Shown: one piece after another, positions 4,725-38,925 of the stretch
Layout of the letters: each line of letters opens with the position of its first letter
Numbering within the stretch: the first letter of the stretch is position 1
DNA from: Isoetes taiwanensis
Taxonomy: Eukaryota > Streptophyta > Lycopodiopsida > Isoetales > Isoetaceae
DNA length: 64,000 nt
Reading direction: 5' to 3'
NCBI GenBank assembly: GCA_021234155.1
Contig: JAJEKV010000003.1
Coordinates: 27,015,166 to 27,079,165 of the forward strand
Translations under genes and position numbers: made by a program
The notes under the pieces: model-generated
Told to the model about the DNA's origin: nothing
The model's input: the letters and a program-made list of their open reading frames with translations, nothing else
The model's database searches: none

Positions 4725-4832
4725 GCTTAGACATCTAAGTCTAGTGGTAAAAATGTATGGACAAGGTGGTTAACCTAGACATCTCCAGTGGTTAACCTGG
4801 ACAGCCTAGTTTAGTGGTTAAGTGGACTAAGC
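4725..4832 (-). repeat. inverted minisatellite units downstream of gene B
   Basis: GTGGTTAACCTAGACA and GTGGTTAACCTGGACA are reverse complements of the units at 1931-2695 and 3505-3810. The gene pair A/B is therefore bracketed by the same motif in opposite orientations, as expected for (sub)terminal inverted repeats of one element. Confidence 0.75.
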
Positions 4833-9387: not shown

Positions 9388-10596
9388 TGTTGTGTGTTTT
9401 ATCTTGACAATTTTTGCATGATGTCTTAAATTGGTGAAATGTGTGCAAAAATGGAGAACAATATGGATGTAATGCGGAGAAAATGTAAAAAATGTGCAAA
9501 TATTGTGGATGAAGCATTTATGATGTATTGAAGTTGAATTTATGGACTTGAAGGTGTATAAAAGTCCTTTTCAATGGTTAAACCATGGGGGTGAGGTGGC
9601 GCAATCCTAGGAGACATGTAAGTTATTGGAGATCTAATGGTGGAGATTGCTTAAAGATGAATCGAGGAGATTTGTTGTGTAAGTTTAAGAGAAGGCACGT
9701 CTCCTCATTCTCCCCCTCTTCCACTCTTGGAGTTTTCTTGAAGATCTATTGTAGAGTGCATCTTCTATGGAAGAATTAATAATAGAAGAGGAGGATGAAC
9801 CTCCAGACTTGTGTTATCTCTCTTCTTCATCGTCTGTAATACATTCTCCTTCATCTGTGTTTTGTAGTACATTGTCATGCTGATGAAATCCATTGCATAG
9901 ACTTTGCTGAATCTTGTATGTGCATACTCTCTCAGCCCACGTCTGGCACTGGAGGACCTCTTACCATGGGAGTTCACAAGAGTTGACTGACGTAGCAATC
10001 CCGGCCAGGAGAACTAACGCCCGGTGTCACAGAGCACACATACATAGAACATAGAAACATGAGTCATGCCGGAGCAACCCAGGCCACCGAACCTGGAAGT
10101 CCAACCCCGGAGGATCCAAGTACATAACAAAACACGAAGACACTGTGACACAATGAATGAGATGATGACATGTGTTGTTCATTAGTTATTTACCATATAT
10201 ATGTGTCTAAACCATACCCTAGCCACTTGCCGAAGTTGCCCATATAACTGCCCATGTTGAAGTAGCAATTTCGGTGATGAAATCCCGATAATCAACCAAC
10301 CCAGGCGATGTAGCAAACTAGAACCACTTCTTTGGTGTAGATATAGTCCACTTCACAACATTAATTTCTTAAACCATCTCTAGCTATGGTTTTAATGTTT
10401 TATAATTTAAATACCGCTTCCTTAGCTAATCAATTTAATAGCACAATTAATATAGAGCCTCCAAATTACGTCTTTCCAGCTTAAATTCCATAGGGTCTCC
10501 TGACCCCAACTGCTTATATCACCTGTCAAAGGATTCCAGTGCAGTTTGCTTGCCTGAGTTTCTGATTGTGATCTTGCACACGGAAATCCATTTACA
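9388..10596 (+). repeat. left long terminal repeat, with internal insertion
   Basis: Matches 16,615-17,199 with roughly ten substitutions and one short deletion over about 530 comparable bases. The match breaks after CATTGCATAGACTTTGC at 9907 and resumes with AGTTTGCTTGCCTGAG at 10,543; the ~635 bases between are absent from the right repeat. Confidence 0.8.
9908..10542. mobile_element. ~635 bp insertion inside the left LTR
   Basis: Recognised only because the right LTR lacks it. No protein or clear inverted termini were seen (ends TGAATCTTG and GATTCCAGTGC), so the class is unknown. Loss from the right copy is the alternative. Confidence 0.5.
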
Positions 10597-16614: not shown

Positions 16615-17199
16615 TGTTGTGTGTTTTATCTTGACAATTTTTGCATGATGTCTTAAATTGGTGAAATGTGTGCAAAAATGGAGAACAATATGGATGTAAT
16701 GTGGAGAAAATGTAAAAAATGTGCAAATATTGTGGATGAAGCATTTATGATGTATTGAAGTTGAATTTATGGACTTGAAGGTGTATAAAAGTCCTTTTTA
16801 ATGGTTAAAGCATGGGGGGTGAGGTGGCGCAATCCTAGGAGACATGTAAGTTATTGGAGATCTAATGGTGGAGATTGCTTAAAGATGAATCGAGGAGATT
16901 TGTTGTGTAAGTTTAAGAGGAGGCACGTCTCCTCATTCTCTCCCTCTTCCACTCTTGGAGTTTTCTTGAAGATCTATTGTAGAGTGCATCTTCTATGGAA
17001 GAATTAATAATAGAAGAAGAGGATGAACCTCCAGACTCGTGTTATCTCTCTTCTTCATCGTCTGTAATACATTCTCCTTCATCTGTGTTTTGTAGTACAT
17101 TGTCATGCTGGTAGAATGGGATGAAATCCATTGCATAGACTTTGCAGTTTGCTTGCCTGAGTTTCTGATTGTGATCTTCCACATGGAAATCCATTTACA
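16615..17199 (+). repeat. right long terminal repeat
   Basis: 585 bp, TGTTGTGTG to CCATTTACA, uninterrupted. Followed directly by ATGGT, the partner of ATAGT before the left repeat. Confidence 0.8.
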
Positions 17200-17689: not shown

Positions 17690-17846
17690 AGACACCGTGT
17701 TATGGTGAAGACAGATTCGAGGGATGCATATTTGCCCAGCAGATTCGGCCAAGGTCCATGAAATATGAAGGGGCCTTTTTTATATGGATTTTCAAGGTTT
17801 CTCTTATCATCGTGTTATGAAGCACAATTTCATTAATTATGGACAA
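17690..17846 (+). mobile_element. MITE-like element, copy 1 (3' part)
   Basis: Contains GATTCGAGGGATGCATATTTG and AAGGTCCATGAAAT and ends with AATTTCATTAATTATGGAC. A second copy at 30,420-31,010 has the same middle in the same orientation but begins with the inverted end (GTCCATAATTAATGAAATT). Together they suggest one element with terminal inverted repeats, each copy truncated at one side. Confidence 0.6.
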
Positions 17847-17904
17847 TACCTGAATTTATGGACCATTTTTTAGTACACTTGCATGAATGACTCATTTTCA
17901 TACA

Positions 17905-20900
17905 CTAGTTGACATCCCTTGCGAGTGCTGCATATGCCTCAGCAGCATGCACGGGTATCTTAATAGTATTAGGTATCTTCTTCTTGTTTGATAGCTCCCA
18001 AGCGTAGTCGATAGTCTCCAGTTCTATGTGGTCACTTGCAGTCGTTGGCCTCCATCTCTTCTTCCAGCAATTGGCATAATTAGCTGGGTAGACTTGGTTC
18101 CTCACTGGGATTGGCTCCCACCAAGTCACAAGAATAGTCTCAAAGTTCTCCTTCTTATCATCCATTTGTGGGTCCTCAGTAGCTAGGCCCACCCAAGTTG
18201 GGCACAACACATCATCAGGGCATGCCATAATAAACATACCTTTCTTCAAATCTTTGTATGGGTTGAATTCTAATACAGGTTTGTCCTTCCAGGGGCCGAC
18301 ATAAGGAGGAGTGATAGTAGCAATTGGCTCCACCACTACTGACTACATGAGGTGGAGCTGCGCTGCCTACCCTGCAAGTCGTGGCGAGGAAGTCATTATA
18401 AGTGCCTTCGTCCACTGCTGATGTTCCCGAAGTTCTTGCAAGAGTTTCATCCAATATTCAATCGTGGGCGTGAATGCGTGCGAGTACTTGGCTGTTTACG
18501 GAGCACCCTTGTTACTAGTTGAACAAGCAACCCAATGCAATATATGCTTGTGGATCTTTGTTTGCTGACAGAGGCCAAGGTCCTTCACCAATTTCTTGGG
18601 AGGAAGCAGCTTAGGATATCCAACTGGCATCATGGGCTTCCCGTCCTCTTTTTCTTTCCACATCTTTATTCCACCAGCAGGCAATAAGTGGGTCGAGTTT
18701 TGTAATACATGACTGGCCAATCACCATTCATAGTGAATCTGAAAGTTAGAGGGGTGGTATGACCTGTCAATCTATCATCCCCATCTGGTATGTAGCCTTC
18801 TATAAAACCCTTCCAATCTGGAACTTTGTCAACAACATAGGGCACAGGTGTATTCAAGTTGCATTTGTGGAATTCATACAGTAGTTCTGGCATTGTGAGC
18901 TCCTCAGCCTTCTTTAAAGATGTAGAGAAGTTACCAAACAAGGCATCGATATCATCATGTGTATGACCGGGCATCATGAACCCTAACTCAATCTCTTCAA
19001 ACACACCAAGATATACTAGGTAAGAAAGATAGGAGAAGACATACCTATTCTTGTTCTGTCCAGATGCATTGTCCAGCTACAAATAAAGTATCTTGGGCAG
19101 AGGCTTCAATGATGATCCCTCAGCATGTGGCAAATTAGCAGGTATGCTGTTGTTGGATAGTGACAACTTTGACCCCAAGGCCGTGGTGTCTCGCAAGGAG
19201 GACACCCATTCTGGAGCAGATGATTCAGGCACTGACAGGTGGCCTCCTGCATACTCGTGCCCCATCTCTAATCTCTTCAAGATGCTATTCAAAGAACCTA
19301 CATTAGTCATCTGGCCATAAGTCCAGGGCAAAGTTTCCATGGGATCCATTTCCATGACCATGAGTCAATGCACCAGTCAATGTCGTTTTGAGCTTGTCAA
19401 GTCTCCAGAGAGACTTCACAGATTGTTGCAATTTTGGAATCATTATTTTCGCTTGATCCATTTTGTCGTGAATAATACAAAGACATTGGCCGGGATACCT
19501 GTGGGAGTATAATCTCCACGACCAGTACTGTGTGCGACACGAGGCCTGCTCCAGTCTATGCGCTCTTCTTTCATCATGCAGCATCCTCCTCTCTCCTTCA
19601 TCTTTGGTCTTCAGTAACTTTGTACTGATCACCTCACATGTATCACATTTGGAGAATGCAATTTTCTTTGCGATACTGACATCCCGGAAGCTCCGCCTCC
19701 ACGTTCTATGAAAACCTGTCGGTGATACCTTCTTGTCAGTCAATGCCACAACCTCTGCATTAACCTCTTCTAGGGGATTCACCGTTCTCCCTCACAAACA
19801 TGGAAAACACGGCCTCACATGCCAACGTTGAGGAGGGAGGCTTCAAGGTGCCACAGTTAACATGTTCGGCCTTGCGTGCACCCTCAAGAAATTGGGCCTT
19901 CCATTTCAGATACGCCGACTTTGAGATCCCGAGACCAAGGTACCACGCCCTTTCGCAAACGAGATTCCCTTGCAGCACTAGTCGTCCCACTCTTCGACCT
20001 TTTATGTTGTTGGCGAACATGTCATAAACAAAAGTAACCCTATCACTTGATTTCATGGCAAGGAATTCCTTTCGCATGTTAATAACTTGATTCGTAGAGA
20101 ACTTGATGCAACACCTATTCTTGCAACTCAAGGTCTTCCTGTAACTGAGGATAGCATTCTGAGTGGTGAGACGAGCAAGCTTTGGTGGCCTTACAACCTT
20201 CCTGGGCTGTCGGGAATGAAAAGTGTAATGTCGTTTCTCATAATTTGGGTGCTTCTGATGCCCTGAGCTCCCCGGTTGGACACTATATATCGCTTCCCTG
20301 TTGCGGTCTTTGCGGTCAATATCTTCGAGACCTTTACTCCATCACCACAGACGAGGTCATTGTTCCATCTCACGAGCATCCCCAGTTTCGGCAGCTGCAA
20401 GCAACCCTGGCAACAGATGTTCACTTCAGAAAGGGGAGGGAAACCTTGATTCTGAGATACTCCCACAAACTTGAAACCCGTGAAACCTGGTCACAAAGTC
20501 TGCATCATCGGGGCCAGTGAAAGATATGAATCCCTTTCCGGCGATAATGGAGTCACAGGAGTGCCATATCTCACAATCCTTTTCAAGAAGGGTATATCTT
20601 GTCAGCCGTTGTGTCTCCTTTCCCACCCTCGTCCATTTGTCTTTTTCTTTGGGGACGTCATTACCAGACGACTCACGAGCATCTTTACTTCTCCAGAGAA
20701 TGAATGAGCCCCTGGCTTCTGCTATTGTGTTTGCATCTGGAGTTGGCCAAGGAAGGGTATGGTGGCCTTCGAACACTTCCTCCACACCTATGCTAACTAC
20801 TCCATTCGATATTTCCTTGAAGTGGCATTGTGTCATTTGCCCCACAACTCCCTTTGCTACTAGATGTTCATTAAGGAAGAGATACACAACCTGCACAAGG

Positions 20901-21025
20901 ATTTCAGTAGTGTCAAAATTGAGTAAGGAAGACGAGAAAGCAATGCAAAGGACATGGGGGGAAGGCCATTCAATGGGTAGACGGACAATGAAATTCCTCT
21001 TGTTCTTAGATTCCCCTTGTTGCAA
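17905..21025 (-). pseudogene. plant transposon protein, GHTHxDID type (DUF7869-like), decayed
   Basis: Reading from 21,025 downwards: a DUF8039-like stretch (VYLFLNEHLVAKGVVG, HHTLPWPTPDANTI, GSFILWRSKDA), a region at 20,191-20,466, then the body: CCIKFSTNQVINMRKEFL and ERAWYLGLGISKSAYLKWK (19,760-20,131), SKCDTCEVISTKL and CIIHDKMDQAKIMIPKL (19,303-19,782), MPGHTHDDIDALFGNF (18,666-19,004), and a C-terminal part with PTWVGLATED and ILVTWWEPIP (17,905-18,336). This order is typical of a widespread family of transposon proteins assigned from memory to DUF7869; its catalytic role is not established. At least six frame changes or stops break the gene. The first of the 22 bp palindromes lies at its 5' end. 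Confidence 0.75.
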
Positions 21026-21374
21026 ATTGGGCGGCCGCCCAATTTGAACCGAATGAGGCGCTTATATGAGGTTAGTATAGATGTAGGCAGTCTCACACTG
21101 GGCACAAATAAAGGTTCTTGCTCTGAATAGGCTATGACCGCGGACAAATTGGGTGCCCGCCCAATTTGGTCGTGATTGTAGAAGAACTGTAAAGAAGGCA
21201 GAGACTCGGCGCCCGCCCAATTTAGCTGCCATAGAGAAAACACATTCGGGTGACAACTTGAGAATAGGCACAATAGGCACAACTTGAGATACAGTTTGCC
21301 CAACCGGCCAATTTCACCTATCTCGTCATCTAAACAAAGGGACAAACTGGGCGGCCGCCCAATTTGTCCCTTTG
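21024..21374. repeat. 22 bp palindromes, cluster 1 (four copies)
   Basis: Copies at 21,024-21,045 (centre GC), 21,146-21,167 (centre CC), 21,202-21,223 (left arm degenerate) and 21,344-21,365 (centre GC). Consensus arms are AAATTGGGCG and CGCCCAATTT. The last copy is the core of a 40-base palindrome (21,335-21,374): its flanks CAAAGGGAC and GTCCCTTTG also pair. Confidence 0.95.
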
Positions 21375-21699
21375 TGTAGATAAAACTGAACGAGGTATAC
21401 ACTAAAAAAACCCCTTTTGATTGAAGGGACAAGGGTTGGACTGCACACCTGAGTGGAATTATCATTAAGCTACCAAAACAAATACAATCGAGCATTGGAA
21501 GGGCCTGACTGCAGACAAGGGTGGACTTATCAGGGTAGTTCTTGGGGACAAACAAACGACCATGGAGAAAACAGCAAGCACACAATTCCTGCACACCAAT
21601 TTCAGGAAAAGGAAGGACTGCATCAAAACTTAGAGTTTATGTAAATGTGATAGTAGATGTCAAAGTCCAAACTTCAAAAATGTGACCGAACTACCACAC

Positions 21700-21855
21700 C
21701 GGTGAATGATGAGGAATAAATCAACAGGCGCCATCGAAAAGCCGTGAATGAAGAGGTGCGAATGAACAGGCGTGAATGAAGAGGTGTGAATGAATAGGTG
21801 TGCTTGAAGAGGTGTGAATGAACAGCCGTGAATGAAAAGGCGTGAATGATTACAT
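21700..21855 (+). repeat. ~14 bp minisatellite
   Basis: About ten units alternating GTGAATGAAGAGGT, GTGAATGAACAGGC and GTGAATGAAAAGGC, with one CTTGAAGAGGT variant. No gene is involved. Confidence 0.9.
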
Positions 21856-22034
21856 CCCTTCAGATTAGTTTTGCAGCAATTACACATCGAGCTATGGCGA
21901 ATAAAACTGAGGAGCAGCACAAACCTTTGGAGATTTCGTGGCTATGAGTATGAAGCGCTGAAGATCTTTGCGTCTTGAAGAAAGATAGTAGCCAAACAGA
22001 GCAGTGCCAGAAAAACAATAGGTTTGAAGCGCAT

Positions 22035-22160
22035 TTACATTTAAACACAAATTCCCCCCAAAATTTGAATGTAATTTTCCCCCTATTTTGAAAGTTAAAT
22101 GTCCCCCCTAATTTCGAAGTAATATGTCCCGCCCCGAACTTTTAAACACAACTTCCCGCC
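22035..22160 (+). repeat. degenerate ~26 bp tandem repeat
   Basis: Four to five units built on TCCCCCCTAATTTGAA followed by TGTAAT/AGTTAAATG. It lies 500 bases upstream of the ParB-like gene start. Confidence 0.65.
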
Positions 22161-22979
22161 TAAAACACGTGCGCCACGTGCATGACTCGAATTAAATTTG
22201 GGCGGGCTTTAAATGACGGATTTGAAATTTAAAATCTCCGTGCATTTATTAATAAGGTCCACAATTAATTCCTAACACTCGAACCCATCAACGGTCCATT
22301 TTTATTTGAAAAGGCCAAACTCTCACATGCATGACACTTGTCTTTCGCTCATGAAAGGTCCATACCCCTTTAAAAGCCCTTCATTCTCCTTGACTGCAGT
22401 TTTAGAAAATTCTGTGCTTCTTTGGCGCTTTCTGGTTTGCTTAACACTGTCGCCTTCATATTTTTTACCTACGAAACTCATTCTCATCCCTATCCTGTCG
22501 CCAAGAGACTATACTCCCGAACCAGTTGCGGCCGGATCGAGCACTGGCGCCTTGTGTTTTCGGCCGCTTGTCGCCATCTGTTGGCGCCTTCCTCATTCAT
22601 TGTCCTATCGCCTGGGAACCCCTGTACACCAAGGAATCTTAGCAGTTGATGGCATCTCGCCCCACCACAGGAGGCAAAGGTAAGCTGGACTACTATCTTA
22701 ATATAAACTTGAGCGCCTGCCCATATCATAAACCTCGGGGTATCCCACTTATGCTTTGAGGAAATTGGGTTGTGGCTGACAAATTGACCTCTTCTAGATG
22801 CCTCACTGGTCCCCACAAATGCATATCTGTGTGCAGAACTTCATAGGGCACCCAATTGCTTCCCCGAGGGGCTTTCATTTTGCACAACATTGACCTTTTT
22901 CTCCAGTAGGCTACCCTTCCATCACGAGGGGTATCTTAACTATGCTCATGGGCAATAGAACGAACTTCTCCCTCATACC

Positions 22980-23395
22980 AAATTGGGCGGACGCCCAATT
23001 TACTCTTAAGGACACCACGACTTCCTTGGATAGTATACTTGGGCAGAAGTAAATTGGGCGGGCGCCCAATTTGGTGTGCATAGGGATCCGGCCAAATTGG
23101 GCGGGCGCCCAATTTGGCCTCTATGATGCAACAGTCTCTTCAGCCCCAAGTCTCACCATGAATTGAGCGGGAGTAAATTGGGCGGGCGCCCAATTTGTTG
23201 TGCGTAGGGATCCGGCCAAATTGGGCGGGTGCCCAGTTTGGCCTCTATGATGCAACCGTCTCTTCAGCCCGAAGTCTCACCATGAATTGAGCGGGAGTAA
23301 ATTGGGCGGGCGCCCAATTTGGTGTGCGTAGGGATCCGGCCAAATTGGGCGGACGCCCAATTTGGCCTCTATGATGCAACCGTCTCTTCAGCCCC
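22980..23395 (+). repeat. 22 bp palindromes, cluster 2, in a 124 bp tandem array inside intron 1
   Basis: Seven palindromes: 22,980, 23,051, 23,094, 23,175, 23,218, 23,299 and 23,342 (each 22 bp; centres GA, GG, GG, GG, GG, GG, GA). From about 23,048 a 124 bp unit carrying two palindromes 43 bases apart, joined by TGTGCGTAGGGATCCGGCC, repeats three times. All lie in the first intron of the ParB-like gene. Confidence 0.95.
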
Positions 23396-25092
23396 AAGTC
23401 TCCCAAGTTCTAACACTACTTTCCGATTCTGGCAGAATTATTATGGCTTGAACAAAGCGGCATCGCTTTCGGGTTCAGGTCCCGCACCCAGATTTGTAGA
23501 GGCTATAGCAAGAGAGGATGCAAGAACAGAAGAAGAGAAAGAACTATTTGCTGGCATCCAGGTAGTGCCCCATGAAGTTTTGACGGTTGCTGAGAAATGG
23601 TACTAGTGCATAGAGATAGGGAATATTCACCCTGGGTCCCAGACAAACCACCTCAAGGATCTTTTGCTTTTCTTTGGCAAGAGAGGGACATGAAAAATGA
23701 ACTCGGCGGGTATCGTCATCGACATGGAGGTCTCGCCTGAGAACAATCATGACTTCCTCATCGATGTTGAAGACACCGTAGATCGGGCTTTCGTCCGTTA
23801 TAAGGTTTCACTTTCTAGCTACGAGCCATGTATGATGAACGCAAGTATAAAGGAAAGCCCACAATCTTGCGCTCATAGAGGATGGGCACTAGACTCATAT
23901 GAAAGTTTAGAGAGCTCGGGCATCAAATCAAGAACGATATCTTGGATGGCTACTACATTTGTCGGCGGTGGATATTAGAACACAAAGCGAGCAGTCAGTG
24001 CTAATCGTTCACGGAGTATCAAGGCAAAAACTAACCTAAAGTATACGATACTAAGTGGCTTAAGTCTAGATACAAGGAGAGTGAGACATCCTGGCCTTGA
24101 GCGCCGGGCCCATGGAGACCGAGACATCGACAAAGAAGGCGAGGACACACCTCTGACTATTCCCGTAAAAGCGCCCCTAAACTTGTATTGGGTGGAGTGT
24201 CGAGAACAGCAAGGTCGCCCAATGTGAGTCTGAGAGAAGAGGAACAGTCGTCGAAGAGGAACCCTCTAAGCATACGGGGAAAACATTTAGCTGGTCCTCC
24301 CAAGAGGCGCAAGCGGGACATCTCACCACGAGCCCAAATAGTTAGGAGGGAGTCTTTATGCCTTCTTCAACCGAAGAGCGGGAGACTAGCCGGTAGATCG
24401 TGAAGTTCACTCCATCCGGTGGCGGCGTCACTGGGAGAGCGGGACATGAGTTGTCACAGGCGCCATTGCAAGCATCAAGCTAATGGGGAGAGAATCTACC
24501 CTCCGGGGATGGGCTTGAGATTGAAGTCGATGTGTTCAAGATGCATAAAGCCCGGCAAATATGACTTGTAGGGTCATAAGTCCAGAGCACTTGGACACTC
24601 TCTACGAATCGTTTATCAGCCATCGATGCACCCTCCCCGTCTTTGATGTCGTGCCGATTCGATCCACGCATGAGCGGCGAGCAATTAAGTGGAACAAGGC
24701 AGAGGACCTGCAAAATGCAGAATTTTGGATTGTAAATGGCAACCATACGACCACGGTTGCTCAACTGCTTGTCACACAAGCTTTGGCATGGCCTCCTGAA
24801 ATGAAGCACTTGGCAGAACTGATATTCTTTTTCTATGCCAAAAGGAAATGCCGAGTCCTGGCAGGAAATCTCACAGCAATCGAGTACGTTCGTGTCAGCC
24901 AAGGGAATAATGACATAACAAAGAAGACTATACACGAAGAAGTATTCTTCGAAGAAATTCAGCAGCTTCAAAACCAGTGGGCATTCTACGGGAAGCCTAA
25001 GAAGGGCAAACGCGGGCACTCCGTCGGTGGAGCTTATTCTGTGAGTGCACTACCACCATTATTTTTGACAGTTTGTGCTATCCACCAGTGCC

Positions 25093-25273
25093 AAATTGGG
25101 CGCCCGCCCAATTTCAGACTGTTGACACTCTGTTCAAATTGGGCGGCCGCCCAATTCCCTTGAACGAGTGCCAATTGGGCGCCCGCCCTATTTGGGACCC
25201 GTTCAGGGAAATTGGGCGCCCGCCCAGCTCAGCTTAGTGTCAGATGGTCTGAAATTGGGTGGGCGCCCAATTT
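25093..25273 (+). repeat. 22 bp palindromes, cluster 3, inside an intron
   Basis: Five copies at 25,093 (centre CC), 25,136 (GC), 25,172 (CC), 25,209 (CC, right arm degenerate) and 25,252 (GG), spaced 36-43 bases. They fill most of the intron 25,041-25,342, whose GTGAGT and ATGCAG borders are intact. Confidence 0.95.
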
Positions 25274-26359
25274 GGGACTGCTAGTGCAGGCAAATTAAGA
25301 TGATGTGTATGGGCCTTATCTAATGCCTTCTGTGTCATGCAGGATTGGAAAGCTGTCGCGCTGCAAACAATTAAAAATGCAACTATGCGTGACTACGACT
25401 ACTTCGTATATCTTGATAACGAATCGTGGTCAATGTGCACCGAAGTTGCCCAGTTATTTTACGAAGACCGGTTGAAGGATGAGAAGGGAGAAAGAATTGA
25501 AGTGAAAGATAGGCTCGGACTTTTCACCAACAATTCCTGTCGCCCATTAAAGTCCATGCATCCTCTAGATCTGAAAAGGCTGATGAAGGAGATCAAGGAT
25601 GGCACCATATTCCTGAAGGGAAGCAAGGACTATACTGGAAGACGTACCATGAAAGTCAGAGCCTTAGAGCTAAAGAAGATTGGAACAATGGAGCGGGCCC
25701 TTGTCAGATACATGAAGGAAGTGAAGAAACTTCCTTTTCAAGACATGGCTGCCTTGAGGCAAGCTCATCCCATATTCACAGAGAATCTGATGCTTATGTT
25801 CGCCAGTAGTATCAGTGGATGGGCAGAAGGACGCAAAGAGATGGAGAAGGAGCTTTCCGGAGTCCCTCTACGGCAAAGTAGACGAATATCTTCTTGGGCC
25901 AGTTGAGGAGGGTGGCAAACCGTTCAAGTGTTTCCACGTTAGTCCACTAGGTTTGTGCGTGGACGTGGTGAACACTTCTGCCCGCTTCATTGGATGTGAC
26001 TTCAGATATACAAAGAAATGGCCAAAGGAAGATTATAAAAAATTCCTTGACTAGCTTAGCACGATGACGGACCAGCAGCTTTACTGGATAGCTATATTTA
26101 TTACGCCAGACCGCCTCAATGAGTGCCTATCCGCCATGAAGACAATAGACGGTGGCAGCCGTGTTTGGGTTGGTTCCTACCAGGACCCCCGGGCCAGAAC
26201 TGCTTCTACCTCTAGAGTTCGAGAGTTGCAATGTCTTGTCCTGCTAATGTATGTTGCCAGAGACGCAGCGGCTCCGCCATCTGTACAGGAAATAAATATT
26301 TGCTTCGCCAATTCCGACCATCCTAAGCTGATCATGAGTGTGCAGCAGGTATGCATTTC

Positions 26360-26381
26360 AAATTGGGCGCCCGCCCAATTT
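26360..26381 (+). repeat. 22 bp palindrome inside a 71-base intron
   Basis: Perfect arms with centre CC. The intron 26,349-26,419 begins GTATGC and ends TTCCTACAG, so the palindrome takes up almost a third of it and begins only 11 bases after the donor. Confidence 0.95.
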
Positions 26382-27405
26382 TGTTGTTGACTATGAATGT
26401 TTCTTTGTTTTTCCTACAGCTTATTGGCTGTATCGTCCTTGGTGCGACAAGGGTGCAGCAGGTGGGGGAGGAGTACTCGTGCAGAATCAGTTGGAAAGTA
26501 CGACGTGCACCTATCTAGTACAGAAGTTGATGTTGGAAGGTTGCACTTTGTTCTCGACTTCTTTTCGGTGGTGCTTTTAAGCGAAGCTGCGGTGTCGCGA
26601 GGGCTATAAAACATTGTCTTTTGAGACAGACGAGAAGCTGGAAATTAAGCTTGTACAGATATTCGAGCAACTCGATGTCATGTTAGACGAGAAAAAATCA
26701 AGAGCTCGGGCACTACAAAAGATCAAAGAGGGAAAGAAGAAGGCGTCTACTTCCAAAAATGTTCCTCAGCCTCAGCTTCCTGCTCCTGAGACACCTTGTC
26801 CGTTCTCCTCTACAACCATAAACGAAGTGCAATCCATTCTGAGACAGGACAAGAGCTCGATTCAGCAAGAGCTCAAAAAGGCAGCGGCCCTTGGCTCTCA
26901 AGATTTGGAACTATTTAGGAGAAGACATCAACGCATTGGCAGGGACGGCACTGGTGAATACTCAGGACATGATTGAGGCGACCTCAAAGTTCGAGGAAGA
27001 GGTTGCTAGGGATCCCGAGTGCATGCGTTGTCATGGAAACACGGGGAAGGGGACAATCGGGGATGGAGAGGATATGGTCCCCAACACATTGAACAATCAA
27101 GATGTAGAGGAAGAGGTCGCGAACGAGTAAGACAATCGGGGTGCGGATGAGGAGAATGAGGACTGGGGTCCCGAAGATTTTAGGCAAAGAATGGAAAAGA
27201 TCAAGGAAGCAGCACAACAACCTCCGCCCCAGCATGAAGAACCCAGCAAGGATCATTCAGAAGAGGTGCCTCCAGATGAATGAGCGATTTATGATTTCAA
27301 AATATGGGAAATATGTTATGAACATTTGTAATTACTTCTTTTTCAGAAATGATAATGTTGCCCTCATTTCCTTGTCTTAAAATTCTCTAGTTTACTTTGC
27401 TAACC

Positions 27406-27539
27406 AAATTGGGCGGGCGCCCAATTTGGTTACCGTAGAAACTAAAACCTTTAATTTAATTTATTTCACGACCAATCTTGTTGCTGTTAACTTGAGACCT
27501 TCGCTATCCTCGGCCAGAAATTGGGCGGGCGCCCAATTT
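27406..27539 (+). repeat. 22 bp palindromes, cluster 4 (two copies)
   Basis: Copies at 27,406-27,427 and 27,518-27,539, both with centre GG and perfect arms. They lie between the end of the ParB-like gene and SLDPWL gene D. Confidence 0.95.
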
Positions 27540-27715
27540 ACTAGCAGAGGAAACATCATCAAACGTGAAGTGAAGTGGAGGTGCAGAAACAGTGGAGATG
27601 AAAGAGCAGACCCTCAGGAATTATTCAGGTACGTTACATTATATAATATTGACTATGCTTATTACATCCTTACATCATTATTATATCCTTGTCAGGTACA
27701 GTAGTCTACAACGAT

Positions 27716-27958
27716 TCACTCGTCGTCAACGCCTGCCAAGGCGATGCCATTCAGCTCAAAGACCTGCTGATCAGGAAGCCAATACAGGTGGACCACAACA
27801 CGAGTGAGCTTCCTGCAAGCACTCGCAGGTCCATCTGCTTTGGACTGGAGCCATGGATCAAGACTAACACCATTCATATAGCACTGGTTAATATCGTTGT
27901 AGCTCAAGTAGCACTTGAAGGATCGGATGTTCTCCGGACGATCCGGCAAGGAAGCCAT
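27716..27958 (-). CDS. SLDPWL-family small protein D (unknown function)
   Basis: An intact 80-residue open frame. It is homologous over almost its full length to the protein at 28,665-28,898: CYLSYNDINQCYMNGVSLDP aligns with CLMTFDDLHACGFKGISLDP, and VVVHLYWLPDQQVFELN with VTIHIVWVPEREAFEIN. The conserved pattern across reading frames on opposite strands is strong evidence that both are real. No signal peptide or membrane segment. The ATG lies only 25 bases from the TATA box, so the mRNA leader must be very short or the start lies a little further in. I do not recognise the family. Confidence 0.7.
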   Translation of the reverse strand: MASLPDRPENIRSFKCYLSYNDINQCYMNGVSLDPWLQSKADGPASACRKLTRVVVHLYWLPDQQVFELNGIALAGVDDE

Positions 27959-27982
27959 GAGAGATGAATGCAGTGGAGCTGC

Positions 27983-28009
27983 TTTTATAGTGGTGAAAAA
28001 TTATTGATG
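27983..28009 (-). promoter_or_regulatory. promoter module of gene D
   Basis: On the minus strand CATCAATAATT (28,009-27,999) is followed after nine bases by TATAAAA (27,989-27,983). Genes E and F have the same 11-mer at nearly the same spacing before their own TATA boxes. Confidence 0.75.
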
Positions 28010-28070
28010 TCAATTATTGGCATACATTCTAGCGCCAGTATTGACTGTATACGGTATACCTGTATAGCCA

Positions 28071-28157
28071 CGCGAAATTGGGCCCAATTTCGCGTACCAT
28101 TCACTATGCGCATTCAAGGGGAACCATTCTAGGGCAAAGTGGGCGGGCGCCCAATTT
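28071..28157 (+). repeat. collapsed palindrome plus one 22 bp palindrome
   Basis: 28,071-28,094 is a perfect 24-base palindrome with arms CGCGAAATTGGG and CCCAATTTCGCG; relative to the family it lacks the CG-NN-CG middle. 28,136-28,157 is a normal copy with left arm AAAGTGGGCG and centre GG. Confidence 0.95.
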
Positions 28158-28261
28158 CACGGGACATGTTGGACAAGTTGCACATATAGAAGACAAGTTG
28201 TACTAATACTTTATCTCATAGATGATTACAGTCTGATTACAACAATATGACAAGCGTTCAT

Positions 28262-28461
28262 TTAGGGAGACTCTTCTGAGTCATTTTCACCGGGCACCCC
28301 AGCGATCTTCTCTATCATGTACATTTGATGCTCTCTATTCCATATCAGATGGATGATAACATCAAAGGGATCAGGATAATGGCGAGGATTTAGAGCTCGC
28401 GGCACTGCTTGAAGTTTTCGTGATTCATCTTATCACGTTCAGGACCAGAATGAGACCACAT
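28262..28461 (-). pseudogene. SLDPWL-family fragment F
   Basis: The ATG at 28,461 opens MWSHSGPERDKMNHENFKQ, which ends at a stop; one frame over, ALNPRHYPDPFDVIIHLIWN and REHQMYMIEKIAG run to a stop at 28,262-28,264. The second part aligns with D (VVVHLYWLPDQQVFELNGIA) and E (VTIHIVWVPEREAFEINRIT). This is therefore a third family member with a frameshift. It is divergent from E, and its promoter module is intact. Confidence 0.5.
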
Positions 28462-28507
28462 GGCTAGCCGAAGGCCAAATTTGATGGACAAAGTTGGTTT
28501 GAGATAT

Positions 28508-28533
28508 ATTTATACCCACTATAATTATTGATG
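28508..28533 (-). promoter_or_regulatory. promoter module of gene F
   Basis: On the minus strand CATCAATAATT (28,533-28,523) is followed after eight bases by TATAAAT (28,514-28,508). The ATG is 47 bases past the TATA box. Confidence 0.7.
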
Positions 28534-28603
28534 GTATTGTACGCAAAGATTATTGGATATACATACTACTCGTATATACACCCAATAATACTGCTACAGT
28601 GGT

Positions 28604-28628
28604 CATCAATAATTCCATGGCTATAAAT
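28604..28628 (+). promoter_or_regulatory. promoter module of gene E
   Basis: CATCAATAATT (28,604-28,614) is followed after seven bases by TATAAAT (28,622-28,628). The E and F modules face away from each other, about 70 bases apart. Confidence 0.75.
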
Positions 28629-28664
28629 ATAGCCGCATTCGAGGGCACAGCACAATCCTTTGCC

Positions 28665-28898
28665 ATGTGTCGCCGTCTTCAGAGATCCCATCTTGACACC
28701 CTCACTTGCCTTATGACCTTTGACGATCTTCATGCCTGCGGCTTCAAAGGGATCTCCCTTGATCCCTGGCTATATGGTATAGCTACTGGTCGAAAGAAAG
28801 ACTCCCCCGGCGAGTATCATGTTACTATCCATATTGTGTGGGTTCCGGAGCGCGAGGCTTTTGAGATTAATAGAATCACCAATAATTACAATCTATGA
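28665..28898 (+). CDS. SLDPWL-family small protein E (unknown function)
   Basis: A 77-residue open frame starting MCRRLQRSHLDTL. I chose the ATG at 28,665 rather than upstream codons because the TATA box at 28,622 makes it the first ATG of the expected transcript and because it aligns with the start region of D. Conserved blocks: DDLHACGFKGISLDPWL and VTIHIVWVPEREAFEIN. Likely a small soluble alpha/beta protein. It ends INRITNNYNL and lacks the acidic tail of D. Confidence 0.7.
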   Translation: MCRRLQRSHLDTLTCLMTFDDLHACGFKGISLDPWLYGIATGRKKDSPGEYHVTIHIVWVPEREAFEINRITNNYNL

Positions 28899-29022
28899 GT
28901 CATGTATTTCATAACTTTATATGATATGACTGTGTTGTGCATCTATCAGTTGTTATCATTCAGTTGTTATCTTCGTTTCTGATCTAGTTTTTATCATTTT
29001 CCATTCGCTTGCAACTCCAAGG

Positions 29023-29510
29023 AAATTGGGCGCCCGCCCGTTTCTTTCTGGAGGTCTCGATGGAATTCCCAAGGCAAAGTGGGCGCCCGCCTAATTAAGC
29101 TGGGAAGCTTCCAAGGAGCTTTGTTCAGACAATTCCAAGGGCAAAGTGGGCGGGCGCCCAATTTGCTCTGGAGGACTGGAGGTAACTTTCATCAGATCAT
29201 CTCCAGGACAAAGTGGGCGGGCGCCCAATTTGTCGGCGTGGCATCGGGAAAGCTTTGTTCAGACAATTCCAAGAGCAAAGTGGGCGGGCGCCCAATTTGC
29301 TCTGTAGGACTGAAGGTAACTTTCATCAGATCATCTCCAGGACAAAGTGGGCGGGCGCCCAATTTGTCGGGGGTGGCCTCGAGAAAACTTTGTTCAGACA
29401 ATTCGAAGAGCAAAGTGGGCGGGCGCCCAATTTGCTCTGGAGGACTGGAGGTAACTTTCATCAGACCATCTCCTAGACAAAGTGGGCGGGCGCCCAATTT
29501 CTTGGGGATA
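29023..29510 (+). repeat. 22 bp palindromes, cluster 5, with ~134 bp tandem repeats
   Basis: Eight copies at 29,023, 29,076 (both centre CC), 29,143, 29,210, 29,277, 29,344, 29,412 and 29,479 (centre GG, left arm AAAGTGGGCG). From 29,143 a 134-135 bp unit with two palindromes repeats three times. Within each unit one palindrome is flanked by GAGC/GCTC and the other by GAC/GTC in most copies, so the arms are extended differently but symmetrically. Open frames running through this array on both strands are repeat artefacts. Confidence 0.95.
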
Positions 29511-29756
29511 GCCTCCAGATGTTACTTTATCAATGTAGACAAGAAGCATTCTATTCATATAGGAATGTAGTACGTGGCTGGAATACATAGATAATAAAAA
29601 GAACTAAACATCATGCCTCGAAAAAGATAGTTGAACATAAACATAATAGATAATATTGTACATGGAGGTTTCAGTCAATGCTCAGTTCCACCGCAATTAG
29701 ATCCCCCAGATCGAACTCTGTAATGGCATCGGCTATCTGAGATCAAACCCGATCAT

Positions 29757-30173
29757 TCAATTCGCGATCGAATGGGGGTCTTTGAGGATGAGCTTCGTTA
29801 CCAAACCCACACGCTCCCTTTTTTCCTTCTTGTAAAGCTTCTTAAATAAGGACCGGAACCTGTTGTGCAGCCAAACATCCTCCATTTTCAGCAGCCTCTT
29901 CAGAGCTTCTGCCTTGTAAATATGGCGCTTCAATGAAATCAAGCAGCCTTCCAGCTCCACCCTGCTGAGGTGATCCGGCTCATCGCCATCCTTCATCAAC
30001 TCTCCCCTACGGAGGAGCTTCCTGAGTTGGTTTCTCATTTCTTCTGTTCCATCTTGGTTTATATCGTTCTGCACCTCGACATGAAGCTGATTCACATGAG
30101 CTAATATTGGCTCGCAGATATGAGACTGCATTTCGCTCATTGTGAATCCATCGTTGCGCCTGGTTCGGACCAT
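29757..30173 (-). CDS. MVRTR-family small protein C (unknown function)
   Basis: An uninterrupted 138-residue frame starting MVRTRRNDGF. It aligns with genes A and B: ILAHVNQLHVEVQND with ILIHLNEIQEDV, and LKRHIYKAEALKRLLKMEDV with LKRCIIQGKVLKYLLAMDVV, then FRSLFKKLYKK with LKACFKEMYAA. Rich in Lys, Arg, Glu and Leu, probably helical; the start resembles a basic tail. Unlike A and B it has no intron. It shares the block with the SLDPWL genes and the 22 bp palindromes and is the only MVRTR copy here with no visible defect. A weak TATA-like TATTTAG lies at 30,293-30,299. Confidence 0.65.
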   Translation of the reverse strand: MVRTRRNDGFTMSEMQSHICEPILAHVNQLHVEVQNDINQDGTEEMRNQLRKLLRRGELMKDGDEPDHLSRVELEGCLISLKRHIYKAEALKRLLKMEDVWLHNRFRSLFKKLYKKEKRERVGLVTKLILKDPHSIAN

Positions 30174-30419
30174 TTTGACTGTCCCGACTACGAATCTACA
30201 CTATGCAGATTTGCGAATGCGGGCTACTGTGGCGAGACAACCTCTAGTCAAGGCGCTTGGGCAGAACAAAAACTCAGATGGCGCTTCTTTGGCTAAATAG
30301 ATACAAGGCCTGCCATCTCACCTACCTGCACGATTCCCGAAGTTTAGCATCATTCTAACGAATAAAACCCCTATATTCTAAAAATTCGGGTCCATTTGGG
30401 AGTCATATGGACTTGGAAA

Positions 30420-31010
30420 AAGTCCATAATTAATGAAATTATGCTTTATGGTGTAGACGGATTCGAGGGATGCATATTTGACCAACAAATTCAGCCAAGG
30501 TCCATGAAATGCTGTAACGTTCCTAACCGACATGCCCTTAACTAACTGAGCAAAACCGTCTAGACATTTATGAGTAGTCACTTCTACCCATTTATGCCAG
30601 TGTCTCGGGAACGCCCCACATGCACATTCAAGGTTCGAATACTCGAGTAGTCTACCATGGGCCCGTTACAGTCTCTCCCACTAGAACTATGCTCGTCCTC
30701 GAGCATCCAAAGCTATACCATGTCACAATGATTACCAAGTCTTTGCAAATTACCCATGCATATAGGCACCCATGGAGACCCGGAACTTCGAGACCTACTC
30801 AAATTACCAAGCTAAGCGTTCCTAACAGGCATGCCCTTAACCAAGCGAGCAAAGCTGTCTAGACATTTATGAGTAGTCACTTCTACCCATTTATGCCGGT
30901 GTCTCGGGAACGCCCCACAGGCACATTCAAGGTTCGAATACTCGAGCGGTCTACCATGGGCCCGTTACAAATGCAAAGGGGTCTTTTTTGTATGGATTTA
31001 CAGGGTTCCT
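30420..31010 (+). mobile_element. MITE-like element, copy 2, interrupted by a TRIM
   Basis: Begins GTCCATAATTAATGAAATT (30,420), continues with GATTCGAGGGATGCATATTTG and AAGGTCCATGAAATGC, is cut by the TRIM, and resumes at 30,970 with AATGCAAAGGGGTC. The 17,690-17,846 copy shows the uninterrupted version. Confidence 0.65.
30513..30969 (+). mobile_element. miniature LTR element (TRIM-like), 457 bp
   Basis: Direct repeats of ~158 bp at 30,513-30,670 and ~30,811-30,969 (TGTAACGTTCC to GGGCCCGTTACA; the second has a changed first base pair). The interior is only ~140 bp with no coding capacity. The 5 bp AATGC is found directly before (30,508-30,512) and directly after (30,970-30,974), a perfect target duplication. 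Such elements depend on proteins made elsewhere. Confidence 0.85.
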
Positions 31011-31039
31011 GTTATAAGACTGATTCCGTGTGTTTTCAG

Positions 31040-31185
31040 AATGAATTGAATAGAATAGTTTTTTAGCGTCCACGGAGACCAATTGGCCTATGGGACCCAA
31101 ACAAAAAGAGAGCAGCAAGCGTATGCTTGCGAGGATTAAAAACCCCCATACGAAGGGTTTTAGGGGAAAAACCTTAGCAGTAATA
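31040..31185 (-). mobile_element. 5'-truncated RTE-like LINE 3' end
   Basis: On the minus strand: CCTTCGTATGGGGGTTTTTA, TTTGGGTCCCATAGGCCAAT, GGTCTCCGTGGACGC, then TATTCTATTCAATTCATT as tail. It matches the 3' end of the LINE at 33,900-36,046. Confidence 0.75.
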
Positions 31186-31199
31186 AGCATCTTTGGCAC

Positions 31200-32560
31200 C
31201 TTTGTCTACAATTGCATAGGACAGTTCAATACCGTCCCGTAGGACACAAACGAGTCCATGCATCCATAACCTCCTGGAGGTATGACCCCAACAATCCCAC
31301 TGATGCCGTAGTCAATAATGATGCAACGGCTGGCCAGGCACTAGTAATCGAACATATCGCTCTCGGATATGGGCAAATGCTGGGCAGATCAAAGATGTTT
31401 TAGGGTTTTAAAGAGCAGCAGAAGAAGATGTTGCTTCAAGTTATCTCCCAATCATCCGCTAATGAGTTGTGCATCCCTCCTGTTGGCCAAATCGAGCCTT
31501 CTGAACCCCTTTCTATGAGGTGTTTTGATGGAAAACAGATACGAATTACAAACTGGGTCCAAATGTTGCTTTTTTTATTGAGGACTTCTTGCCGTGAGCA
31601 CCTATTTATCTTCTATGACTACCATAAGAGATGCAAAAGACCACAATAAGTTGTATGTTGCAAGCTATATTATGTTTTGGAGTTTAATTACTATCAAATT
31701 TAGTTCAGTATGTGAGATTTGTAGGTGCGGAACTTTATATAGATTGAAGCGGAAGAAGATTAATATTAGGGTTTGGGTGCCATTTCGAAATAGATGGACC
31801 CATCACTTATTTTGCCCAGAAGTTCAAGCCAACTGATTAGTTGATGTAGACTATTTTAGGGCCATCAGCCATTGAAGGTATTGGCGAACAATAAGCTTAT
31901 TTCAGTAATCTATTCGCTTTGTACGCTTTGCATTTGAATTGGGGATATGGACAAGCACTTATATTTAGTGGTATATATCTGGAAAGGACAGAGGCATTTG
32001 CGCAGATGAATCACAATGTGATAAATTTGCAAGACCATCTCTTCTCAAATTCACGACTTAAAGCAACATATGGAGCTCAACACATCTCATTATTCTCCTA
32101 TTTTTCCAAGAATGATCAATACAGGGAATATGTAGCAAGCATTACTTAGACGATGAATCTCTGCAGATTTCAAATGATTCTAAATGCCTATGCTACAATA
32201 TATATCGAGATCATTTCTTCCTATATTTTGTTATTTTTATATGTATTCAGAGACAATTAAATTATAGAAGTCCCGTACCATGTGCTATTGCATTGTTGCC
32301 TTCTTTATGCTTCATAATCCACTGCTTGGTAATGTTTACCTCACATAGTAGTTATGTAGTGCAGATATTTAGTGCAGATATTTCATACTACAACACCACA
32401 ACAGATGTTTGATGCTACAGTATTCGCCATGCAATGCAAGCTCAATAAATTTTGGCAATATGTTAGTATCTGTAGCATGCTTACGTGATTATATGGTGAC
32501 AATTGTGCAAGCAACATTACAATGTTTTTTACTTTGTTGATCAATACCAACACAATTCCT
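31200..32560. other. AT-rich stretch without a recognisable gene
   Basis: Short open frames near 31,400-31,650 and 31,920-32,150 have no features I can support. No RNA gene was seen. Confidence 0.45.
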
Positions 32561-33899: not shown

Positions 33900-36046
33900 G
33901 GCAGGCCTAGCACTTGGTCATTACTAAAGGGGATGTCATAATGGGCACCTAGCGCCTAAGCTAGCAGGGAAAGCGGTGATTTGGATGGTATGCGGTGAGC
34001 TTCTCAAGTGGGTAGGGCCCCCAATGGTGCGGTTCTCACATCACTCTTCAACGGGGCATTGCAAGAAGGCTTTCCCCGCCTTTGGACTACCCGGTAGAGT
34101 TGTGCCCATATACAAAGCGAGGGACCCCCACATTGACCAACTATCGTGCCATTATGGTGATTCTGTCTTTGCCAAGTTGCTTGCTTGGGATTCTTGGCGG
34201 TGGCGTGACACTTTGGGCGGAGGATGGAGAAGTCTTGGCTCTCACTTGGCGCGGGCGCCCTTTGCATTCTACTATTGACCATATCTTCACTCTGCGAACA
34301 CTTTCGTAGAGGATAGCGGAATCAACGCCCGAATCGTATTGTTGCTTTGTGGATTTCGCAAAGGCTTTTGACACAATGCCTCGGGATAAGTTGTGGGGCA
34401 GTATTGAGGCGACTAGGGACCCCGTCGACTTGCGAGAATGCTATATACAGACTATCACGAGGCTTGCTCGGTCATCTCACACTTGTTGGGGGCCCGTTGT
34501 TAGTAGCATTGGGGTGCGCCGGGGCTGCCCTCTATCCCCGGCGGCTCTTGGCTTGTACATTGACCAGCTAGAAGAATGGCTAATTTGAGGCATGGGGGGC
34601 TTTCAGTTGATGCACCACATAATCCGGCAACTCATATATCGCGATGATGTTGACTGCTCGCATATACCCGGAGGACATGCAAGCGCCACGGATGCTTTGG
34701 ACACTTTACGCCAATTCGACATGAGAGTTAACTTGGCCAAGACAAAGGGTCTTCTGGTCCCATCATCCGGCACCCACACCTTCCCTCATTCACTTACCCG
34801 AGGCGGGGTAGTGGAGGTGGCTCGATCTTATAAGTATTTGGGCATTGAGTTTTCTACTACCACACACCTTTGGGATGCATCCATCGGGTTATGGATCACT
34901 GCAGTGGAAAGCCCACAGTATGCAATGCAAAACAACTTGATCACAAGGCGAGATTTTGTATGCATGGGGTCACCGGGCACACTTGTTCGAGGGCCTTGGT
35001 TGAACCCGATCCTCCTCTATGGGGGGCGAAGTGTGGGGGCGGTGATATCCCTCACCACTTGGAGCGATATAGAGCAGTGTGAAGGCCTTCTTGGCCGAAC
35101 GGGAGTGTGAAGTCCACGGTCCCATATCGGATCTTGCTCGGGGAGACATGCTTCCTTCCATTCTGAGAGGGCTCTTATTTGGGCGCCATATTATTTACTT
35201 CCATAAGGTGGTGGCTATGGATGAAGGCGGCTGCCCAACCTTGCTTTGGCGATGGCGATGGGGCCCTTGGCGACTCAAAGCCTCTTTGGAAAGACAAGCA
35301 AGCCCGGTGGTTTCGTTATGGAATGTGCGGGCCGAGATGTGGACCGGTGCATACAGGAAGGAACGGCGCTGCCTTGAAGCGATGCTTGGATGCTTGCTTC
35401 ATGGCCAAGCTTTGGGATGCGAGGCCACTGTCACATGTCAAGGTGGCAAATTATCGGACAGCCGAGTTAATCCCATGCTCACAAAGGGGCCCACACCACT
35501 ACTGCGCACCCATCTACCCATGAAAAAGCGCGGGGTGATTGCTTCCATTCCGCAGTGCACACCACCTCCGCATTGGGGCGGGGAGATGGATTCGGGGGCA
35601 GCGTGAGGGGCAGTCTGTCGGCCGGTCCGTCAGCGTGGCGCCATTGAGGATGAAAGTCACGCCCTCGGGCTGTCCGGTGTACCCGGCATATCCGGGCTCG
35701 GTATGCTTTCGGTTAGTTGTGCCCCATCGGGCCTTGCATGAGCTCACGAGCCGCGGCCTCTGTAGGCTTGTTAGGATCATTACCTCAGGAGGTAATGGAT
35801 ACTTGGACTCGGTTATGCCCCCTGTCCAGGCATTAACCTGTTTGTACTTGTGATTATGTATATAACTGTGCAGTATGTCAGCATCCTTATTGCTACTAAG
35901 GTTTTTCCCCCGAAAACCCTTCGGGGCGGGGGTTTTTTAATCCTGGTAGCAATACGCCTGCTGCTCTCTCTTTGTACTTGGGTCCCATAGGCCAGTTGGT
36001 CTCCGTGGACGATAAAATCATATTCTATTCTATTCTATTCTATCAT
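33900..36046 (+). mobile_element. RTE-like LINE, 5'-truncated, with pentanucleotide tail
   Basis: RT sequence from about 33,960, the Cys/His-like end near 35,540-35,720, then a 3' UTR holding a hairpin (GTTTTTCCCCCGAAAACCCT followed by TCGGGGCGGGGGTTTTTT, 35,899-35,937), the conserved end GGTCTCCGTGGACGATAAAA and a (TTCTA)n tail ending at 36,046. Related 3' ends lie at 8269, 31,040, 54,345 and 55,000. Confidence 0.85.
33960..35850 (+). pseudogene. decayed RTE-like reverse transcriptase
   Basis: Recognisable boxes: MDFAKAFDTMPRDKLW (34,349-34,396), GVRRGCPLSPAALGLYIDQL (34,511-34,570), LIYRDDVD where LxYADD is usual, MRVNLAKTKGLLVPSS and YKYLGIEFSTTTH (34,592-34,866), then a C-terminal zinc-binding-like region. 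The order fits an RT with fingers, palm and thumb. Stops and frame changes occur near 34,585, 35,107 and elsewhere. The two active-site aspartates are still encoded. Confidence 0.8.
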
Positions 36047-38818: not shown

Positions 38819-38925
38819 GGATAACACCCTGGAACGAGGGTGTTATGCCCTATTATAACAAACGAGGGCCGGAGGCCCGAGTTTGTTATAGTAGGGCATA
38901 ACACCCGAGTTCTAGGGTGTTATCC
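38819..38925. repeat. 107 bp foldback hairpin
   Basis: Two 45-base arms pair at about 41 of 45 positions around a 17-base loop (GAGGGCCGGAGGCCCGA). Each arm also contains its own smaller inverted repeat (TAACACCCT … AGGGTGTTA). No coding sequence. Confidence 0.95.

What the first reader, a model, noticed from the sequence alone, without database searches (positions are those of the whole stretch)
21024..29500. A family of ~29 copies of a 22 bp palindrome confined to one 8.5 kb block
Copies start at 21024, 21146, 21202, 21344, 22980, 23051, 23094, 23175, 23218, 23299, 23342, 25093, 25136, 25172, 25209, 25252, 26360, 27406, 27518, 28071 (collapsed), 28136, 29023, 29076, 29143, 29210, 29277, 29344, 29412 and 29479. 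The arms are AAATTGGGCG and CGCCCAATTT; only the two central bases vary freely (GG 15, CC 8, GC 3, GA 2). I found none in the other 55 kb. The flanks differ from copy to copy, so most copies are not one long repeat. This pattern fits binding sites or recombination sites better than ordinary satellite DNA. It is not a repeat I can name.
Basis: seen in the sequence. Interest (0 to 1): 0.87.

Follow-up and report, generated by a model that had tools for sequence, protein, structure and literature searches.

The report
A transposon's private palindromic docking sites
The repeated 22-letter palindrome belongs to a large family of jumping genes in this plant-like genome, sits in their non-coding parts and stays unchanged while its surroundings drift, so it is most likely a landing site for a protein that controls the jumping gene.

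Summary
In detail: 28 copies within 3 mismatches plus one collapsed copy, none elsewhere in the window. The block is a 12.6-kb TIR DNA transposon, 17820-30446, with 4-bp TSDs and a DUF7869 gene. The 1.66-Gb genome holds 2720 exact palindromes, control 0. Of 20 stretches read around the first-listed places, 19 hold palindromes and all 20 match the element. The palindromes avoid coding matches (0 of 190) and lie in the same intron in 8 of 10 copies. The word is constrained: in six arrays the arms differ 0-4% between units, the spacers 16-45%. A MULE-like family sharing a 740-bp module (90% identical) with the MVRTR gene carries another 22-bp palindrome instead, 352 exact copies. Best reading: docking sites for a transposon-encoded, probably dimeric, DNA-binding protein, working like VANC targets of Arabidopsis VANDALs (anti-silencing) or, less likely, TNPA sites of CACTA elements. 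The binder and its effect are inferred; no ORF scanned has a VANC or ParB domain match. New variant of a known kind.

The parts
17816..17819 (.). target-site duplication, left (TATG)
   Evidence: equal 4-bp duplications also at both ends of the C20 element (L010/L011), L014, L016 and L023
17820..17844 (+). left terminal inverted repeat AAGCACAATTTCATTAATTATGGAC
17905..20131 (-). transposase-candidate gene with DUF7869 (18666-19004 hits PF25273, E 4.8e-20), split over several frames (decay or introns, not resolved)
   Evidence: homologous pieces in other copies
21024..21365 (.). palindrome cluster A: 21024, 21146, 21202, 21344
22980..23363 (.). palindrome cluster B: 7 copies, six of them in a 124-bp tandem array
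24561..25040 (+). exon 1 of the 'ParB-like' gene (160 aa), 71-72% identical in L033 and L034
   Evidence: no accepted Pfam, NCBIfam or PDB match
25041..25342 (+). predicted intron (GTGAGT...CAG) with palindrome cluster C (25093, 25136, 25172, 25209, 25252); 25057-25305 is one hairpin
25343..25867 (+). exon 2 of the 'ParB-like' gene; later frames look broken
26349..26419 (+). predicted 71-bp intron with palindrome 26360, kept with 0-2 changes at the same place in three other copies
27406..27539 (.). palindromes 27406 and 27518, each in a longer imperfect inverted repeat
27716..27958 (-). 'SLDPWL' gene 1 (80 aa)
28070..28157 (.). collapsed palindrome 28075 (intact in the C20 copy) and palindrome 28136
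28599..28898 (+). 'SLDPWL' gene 2 (99 aa)
29023..29500 (.). palindrome cluster G: 8 copies, mostly in a 67/135-bp tandem array between convergent genes
29757..30173 (-). 'MVRTR' gene (138 aa); 150 scored matches of 2184 candidates in the genome; shared with a MULE-like family
30422..30446 (-). right terminal inverted repeat
30447..30450 (.). target-site duplication, right (TATG)

Best explanation
The palindrome is a cis-acting site of a TIR DNA transposon family (DUF7869-encoding, 4-bp TSD). Arrays of the site lie in introns and intergenic DNA of the element. SHOWN: membership in the element family, non-coding placement, conservation of the arms inside arrays and between subfamilies, and a different palindromic word in a second, MULE-like family that carries the same MVRTR gene module. 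INFERRED: a protein encoded by the element, dimeric because the site is two 10-bp mirror halves about a 2-bp centre, binds these arrays. Dense binding marks the element's own copies and regulates them, most likely by keeping the regulatory DNA active against host silencing, as VANC does for VANDALs; helping transposition, as TNPA does for CACTA elements, is the alternative effect. Arrays grow by tandem duplication and by palindrome-centred inverted duplication.
For: 2720 exact copies, control 0; 20 of 20 stretches of the first sample match the element, 19 of them with palindromes. TIRs and identical 4-bp TSDs in five copies. 0 of 190 palindromes overlap coding matches, and the same intron holds 1-10 copies in 8 of 10 elements. 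In six arrays arm divergence is 0-0.042 against spacers 0.165-0.453, Fisher p 2.5e-5 to 3.2e-11. Fourfold-site divergence of the window copy from L033, L034 and L017 is 0.60-0.69, yet the word is the same. 209 sites: 1.3-1.9 bits per arm position against 0-0.14 in the flanks beyond the first base (0.37-0.42); the sites were picked by up to 5 mismatches, so part of this is built in. Among 31 sources word 1 is in 28, word 2 in the other two that have either, never both; word 2 has 352 exact copies, control 0. Derivatives L014, L016 and L023, with TIRs and TSDs but only about 80-390 bp at either end in common with the window element, hold 4-6 copies. The VANC precedent has motif arrays in introns and upstream DNA that diverge between related elements (PMC5735166: abstract, passages and section 9 seen).
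Against: No binder identified: MVRTR and the ParB-like exon have no accepted Pfam or PDB match and single-sequence models are unusable (pLDDT 44 and 39). MVRTR lies in a module 90% identical at the DNA level between a word-1 and a word-2 element, so it is unlikely to set the specificity. Silencing or activity cannot be measured here. Six of 12 facing TIR pairs (within 20 kb, contigs C1-C137) hold no exact copy (lists compared by eye); one of those, read over 2.3 kb, has decayed copies. CpG transitions are commoner than other G/C transitions in the arms (47 of 836 against 15 of 1254 position-cells, counted), so many copies look to have been methylated. The derivatives were found through the palindrome, so their keeping it is partly a matter of choice.
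Confidence: 0.6

Rival explanations
1. TNPA-type transposition sites: the sites are bound by an element protein chiefly to bring the ends together for excision.
For: Element-specific repeated motifs bound by an element protein are established in CACTA elements (PMC2613891, passages). Gene-less derivatives with TIRs and TSDs hold copies.
Against: Not subterminal: nearest copy 3204 and 946 bp from the window element's ends, 3062 and 959 in C20, 872 and 1102 in L014, 2461 and 1702 in L023; only L016 has one at 210 bp, the other end 1359. The derivatives were sampled because they hold the palindrome.
Confidence: 0.2
2. A parasitic palindrome that spreads by itself inside these elements (as REPINs or organellar palindromic elements are said to, recalled), helped by fold-back template switching; no protein-binding function.
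For: Locus-specific flanks that mirror each other, a hairpin of about 250 bp centred on one copy, nested and collapsed copies.
Against: Several copies sit at the same positions in separate element copies, so they are inherited with the element rather than freshly inserted (21024, 26360, 27406, 28136). No clean 22-bp empty/filled pair was seen in the nine alignment blocks (the C138 copy lacks 28075, but in a larger gap). Arms stay constant inside tandem arrays where each unit is already a copy. No stretch without a match to the element in the first sample.
Confidence: 0.12
3. RNA hairpins: the arrays act in transcripts, as small-RNA sources or decoys or in splicing.
For: Introns and intergenic transcripts would fold strongly.
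Against: A hairpin needs complementarity, not a fixed sequence; here each arm position keeps one base in 88-99% of 209 sites, which were picked by similarity. Matched double changes were not counted; one is visible (L033:579). Sites also lie between genes.
Confidence: 0.08

Closest known systems
VANC target arrays of VANDAL (MULE) transposons, Arabidopsis (PMC5735166, PMC10398659)
   Same: Element-specific short motifs accumulated in non-coding parts, introns included, as tandem repeats, with different motifs in related elements (abstract, passages and section 9 of PMC5735166; abstract of PMC10398659).
   Different: Here the site is a 22-bp palindrome, not YAGTATTAY; the main element has DUF7869, TIRs and 4-bp TSDs instead of a MULE transposase; none of the ORFs scanned has a DUF1985 or DUF287 match, though not every exon was scanned.
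TNPA subterminal motifs of CACTA (En/Spm) elements (PMC2613891, passages)
   Same: Repeated element-specific motif, with lineage-specific versions, presumed bound by an element protein.
   Different: Internal and intronic instead of subterminal; 4-bp instead of 3-bp TSD; no CACTA ends.
Sola2 DNA transposons (PMC3627910, passages)
   Same: TIRs and 4-bp TSDs.
   Different: Transposase not compared; the TSDs here (TATG, CATA, AAAT, GATG, GGAT) are not all AT-only; palindromic arrays are not mentioned in the passages seen.
ParB-parS (recalled)
   Different: No profile match to ParB; the resemblance is by eye only.

Membership tests
VANDAL/VANC anti-silencing system | motif arrays in introns and other non-coding DNA of the element | tested here: met
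VANDAL/VANC anti-silencing system | motif differs between related elements | tested here: inconclusive
   two words, never together in 31 sources, but only one word-2 family was read (two copies, 92-93% alike) and it is related through the MVRTR module, not shown to be through the transposase
VANDAL/VANC anti-silencing system | VANC protein with DUF1985/DUF287 | tested here: inconclusive
   no such match among the ORFs scanned; not every exon was scanned and some genes look broken
VANDAL/VANC anti-silencing system | MULE transposase | tested here: not met
   the window element has DUF7869; L030 has ZSWIM1-3 RNaseH-like 1.5e-5 and MULE 0.0035, both under the curated cut-offs
VANDAL/VANC anti-silencing system | protein-dependent loss of methylation | not testable with these tools
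   needs methylomes or expression of the protein
CACTA (En/Spm) with TNPA sites | CACTA ends and 3-bp TSD | tested here: not met
   TIR AAGCACAATTTC..., 4-bp TSD
CACTA (En/Spm) with TNPA sites | motifs subterminal at both ends | tested here: not met
   five TIR-delimited copies measured
Sola superfamily | 4-bp TSD | tested here: met
   feature from passages of PMC3627910
Sola superfamily | Sola transposase | not tested
   no Sola transposase was compared; that DUF7869 could be one is a guess
ParB-parS | ParB nuclease/CTPase domain | tested here: not met
   no match in Pfam, NCBIfam or PDB profile searches with exon 1; a remote fold cannot be excluded (model unusable)

The most novel reading that the evidence does not exclude
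A modular control cassette, an MVRTR-type protein plus a lineage-specific palindromic site array, is exchanged between unrelated transposon superfamilies (DUF7869-type and MULE-type) in this genome, each family keeping its own 22-bp word. It would be a VANC-like system evolved outside VANDALs, using long dimeric sites that could act as exact addresses for reading or lifting silencing.
Probability: 0.3. Interest if true: 0.8.

Novelty: new variant of a known kind. Interest (0 to 1): 0.62.

Why it matters
Sequence-specific self-recognition by transposons is known to me mainly from VANDAL/VANC and TNPA. A family with 1040 matches to its terminal pattern and 2720 perfect 22-bp sites, beside a second system with another word and a near-identical accessory gene module, is a natural experiment on how such address codes arise and change. 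The long exact site makes it easy to test by EMSA, DAP-seq or methylome data, and could yield a tool for locus-specific epigenome editing.

Tried and rejected
Viral origin: the 20-bp form of the word has 0 matches in viral contigs, and the ParB-like protein has no relative there by the tool's test. Prokaryotic origin: the 22-bp pattern occurs once in each of 2 contigs of genome contigs, taken as chance. Public protein searches with SLDPWL 2, the ParB-like protein and the MVRTR alignment found nothing at E<=0.001. ARAGORN (bacterial settings) and Rfam at gathering thresholds: none in the window. Paper searches: six forms of the word, 0 papers; DUF7869, 0 papers; two searches on palindromic repeats in transposons or introns gave listings with no title that fits (not opened further); one paper held VANC, palindrom-, anti-silencing and transposable element together, with no palindromic target in the passages shown. 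The library lacks most subscription journals. The 108-bp direct repeat outside the element was first taken for a long TSD; it is an older tandem repeat in the target. The 1.9-4.8 kb repeats were first taken for a third palindromic word; the motif is directional. AlphaFold models were too poor for a fold search, so none was run. I did not find the ends of the word-2 element; its copies have no match to the word-1 TIR within 6 mismatches in the 7 kb read.
Full report
OBSERVATION. With up to three mismatches the pattern has 28 matches in the window, all between 21024 and 29500, against 0.02 expected; the collapsed copy is at 28075 within a 26-bp perfect palindrome. Central dinucleotides are GG 15, CC 8, GC 3 and GA 2.

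WHAT THE BLOCK IS. Short terminal inverted repeats AAGCACAATTTCATTA... begin at 17820 and end at 30446, with TATG on both outer sides. Identical 4-bp duplications flank the C20 copy (L010/L011), L014, L016 and L023. A 108-bp direct repeat just outside is an older tandem repeat into which the element jumped. The DUF7869 gene and the later part of the ParB-like gene run over several frames, so the window copy is probably dead. The surroundings (LINE reverse transcriptase, MULE, an MA3-domain gene) look to me like a plant nuclear genome; the species was not identified.

GENOME-WIDE. The window lies in a 1.658-Gb assembly that holds 2720 exact palindromes, 0 for the control. I fetched 20 stretches around the first-listed places; some are neighbours, so they cover 17 places. 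19 contain palindromes within 3 mismatches and all 20 match the element, L012 (among matches of 60 bp or more) only over its terminal 79 bp. The places come first in contig order and are not a random sample; in a few stretches (for instance L025, L026) the palindromes lie beside, not inside, the aligned parts. The terminal pattern has 495 + 545 matches on the two strands, control 0. By eye, on contigs C1-C137, 12 facing TIR pairs lie within 20 kb; 6 contain exact palindromes and 6 do not (lists). One of the latter (C81), read over 2.3 kb, has two sites within 3 mismatches and others more decayed, at the matching places.

PLACEMENT. None of 190 palindromes overlaps coding matches, which cover 10.6% of the bases searched, a lower bound for coding. 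In 10 copies both exons of the ParB-like gene were found; a GTRAGT donor stands at the projected end of exon 1 in 8 of them and an AG acceptor at the projected start of exon 2 in 7. The interval between the exons carries palindromes in 8 of 10 copies (window 5, L024 2, L034 7, L033 10, L017 5, L013 1, L027 9, L010 2; none in L015 and L008). Site 26360 lies in a predicted 71-bp intron and is kept with 0-2 changes in three other copies. The sites are not subterminal, one copy in L016 excepted.

CONSTRAINT. In six arrays the arms differ by 0 to 4.2% between units while the spacers of the same units differ by 16.5 to 45.3%. Units were found by matching the word with up to 4 mismatches, which could hide decayed ones; in L033, L034 and L017 the spacing has no doubled gap (positions), so nothing was missed there. 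Between the window copy and L033, L034 or L017, fourfold sites of exon 1 differ at 60-69%, yet the word is the same. Over 209 sites, redundant copies included and picked by up to 5 mismatches, the arms hold 1.3-1.9 bits per position and the flanks 0-0.14 beyond the first base. Copies decay: CpG transitions are in excess (counted) and some copies lose their centres.

A SECOND WORD. Ten stretches around MVRTR matches of 58-93% identity: eight carry word 1, two (L030, L031) carry only GAAAATCGCTTAAGCGATTTTC, 8 and 9 sites within 4 mismatches. Its centre is nearly always TA, so the 10-2-10 geometry is compatible rather than shown. Word 2 has 352 exact copies, control 0, in clusters; two of the listed ones (C917) lie 0.7 and 1.1 kb from a further MVRTR match. 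L030 and L031 are 92-93% identical where they align and so count as one family; their transposase resembles MULE/ZSWIM (E 1.5e-5 and 0.0035, both below curated cut-offs). Within the 7-kb stretches compared, L030 shares with the word-1 element L033 only a 740-bp module around the MVRTR gene, at 90% identity. The word therefore follows the rest of the element and not MVRTR.

MIRROR FLANKS. Some copies sit in the middle of longer imperfect inverted repeats with locus-specific arms (21344, 25172, 27406); the excess is modest but significant over 47 non-redundant sites. I take this as palindrome-centred inverted duplication by fold-back or template switching (mechanism recalled, not tested). It helps to explain growth of the arrays, not the constancy of the word.

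HOW IT PROBABLY WORKS. VANC21 of Arabidopsis binds YAGTATTAY, arrayed as fast-changing tandem repeats in introns and upstream DNA of VANDAL21, and VANC proteins cause loss of methylation there (PMC5735166: abstract, passages, section 9). CACTA elements have TNPA-bound subterminal motifs (PMC2613891: passages). The anatomy here fits the first better. Shown: element membership, non-coding arrays, constraint, a second word. Inferred: a dimeric element-encoded binder and its anti-silencing effect. Candidates are the ParB-like and SLDPWL proteins; no ParB domain is detectable.

VERDICT. Real, not chance, not satellite DNA in the ordinary sense; a new variant of a known kind, with a bolder reading (a cassette exchanged between superfamilies) that the evidence does not exclude.

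Noticed in passing
window 1930-4830: Arrays of a directional motif TGTCYAGGTTWACCACTAGA (43 matches of its 18-bp core within 5 mismatches, 40 on +, 3 on -; 1 per strand elsewhere in the window) around two divergent genes, one with an MVRTR-like protein (2.9-3.34 kb, minus; 30-45% identical to MVRTR proteins of L029, L031, L033, L034), beside a MULE transposase at 5.3-6.8 kb: possibly a third such system.
   Followed up: partly
window 30511-30970: An insert with two 153-bp direct repeats (93% identical) splits the right copy of the 108-bp target repeat; looks like a small terminal-repeat element.
   Followed up: no
window 9388-9907 and 16615-17145: Two copies of a 530-bp repeat, 97% identical, and another set of related repeats at 9.0, 10.7, 32.6 and 51.7-52.2 kb.
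   Followed up: no
window 31038-31308 and 35754-36041: Inverted arms of about 290 bp, 74% identical, 4.4 kb apart, around an open frame at 34.6-35.1 kb without a Pfam match.
   Followed up: no
window 57611-59449: Single-frame gene with four MA3 domains (E 7.8e-108) and no palindromes nearby.
   Followed up: no
window 38819-38925: Strong 52-bp-arm hairpin with a 3-nt loop, 88% complementary.
   Followed up: no
L014 5241: An extra inward-facing TIR-like sequence inside this short derivative, 650 bp from its left end.
   Followed up: no
window 28075; L037; C20 copy (L010/L011): Some copies of the palindrome lose central bases, leaving a shorter palindrome.
   Followed up: partly
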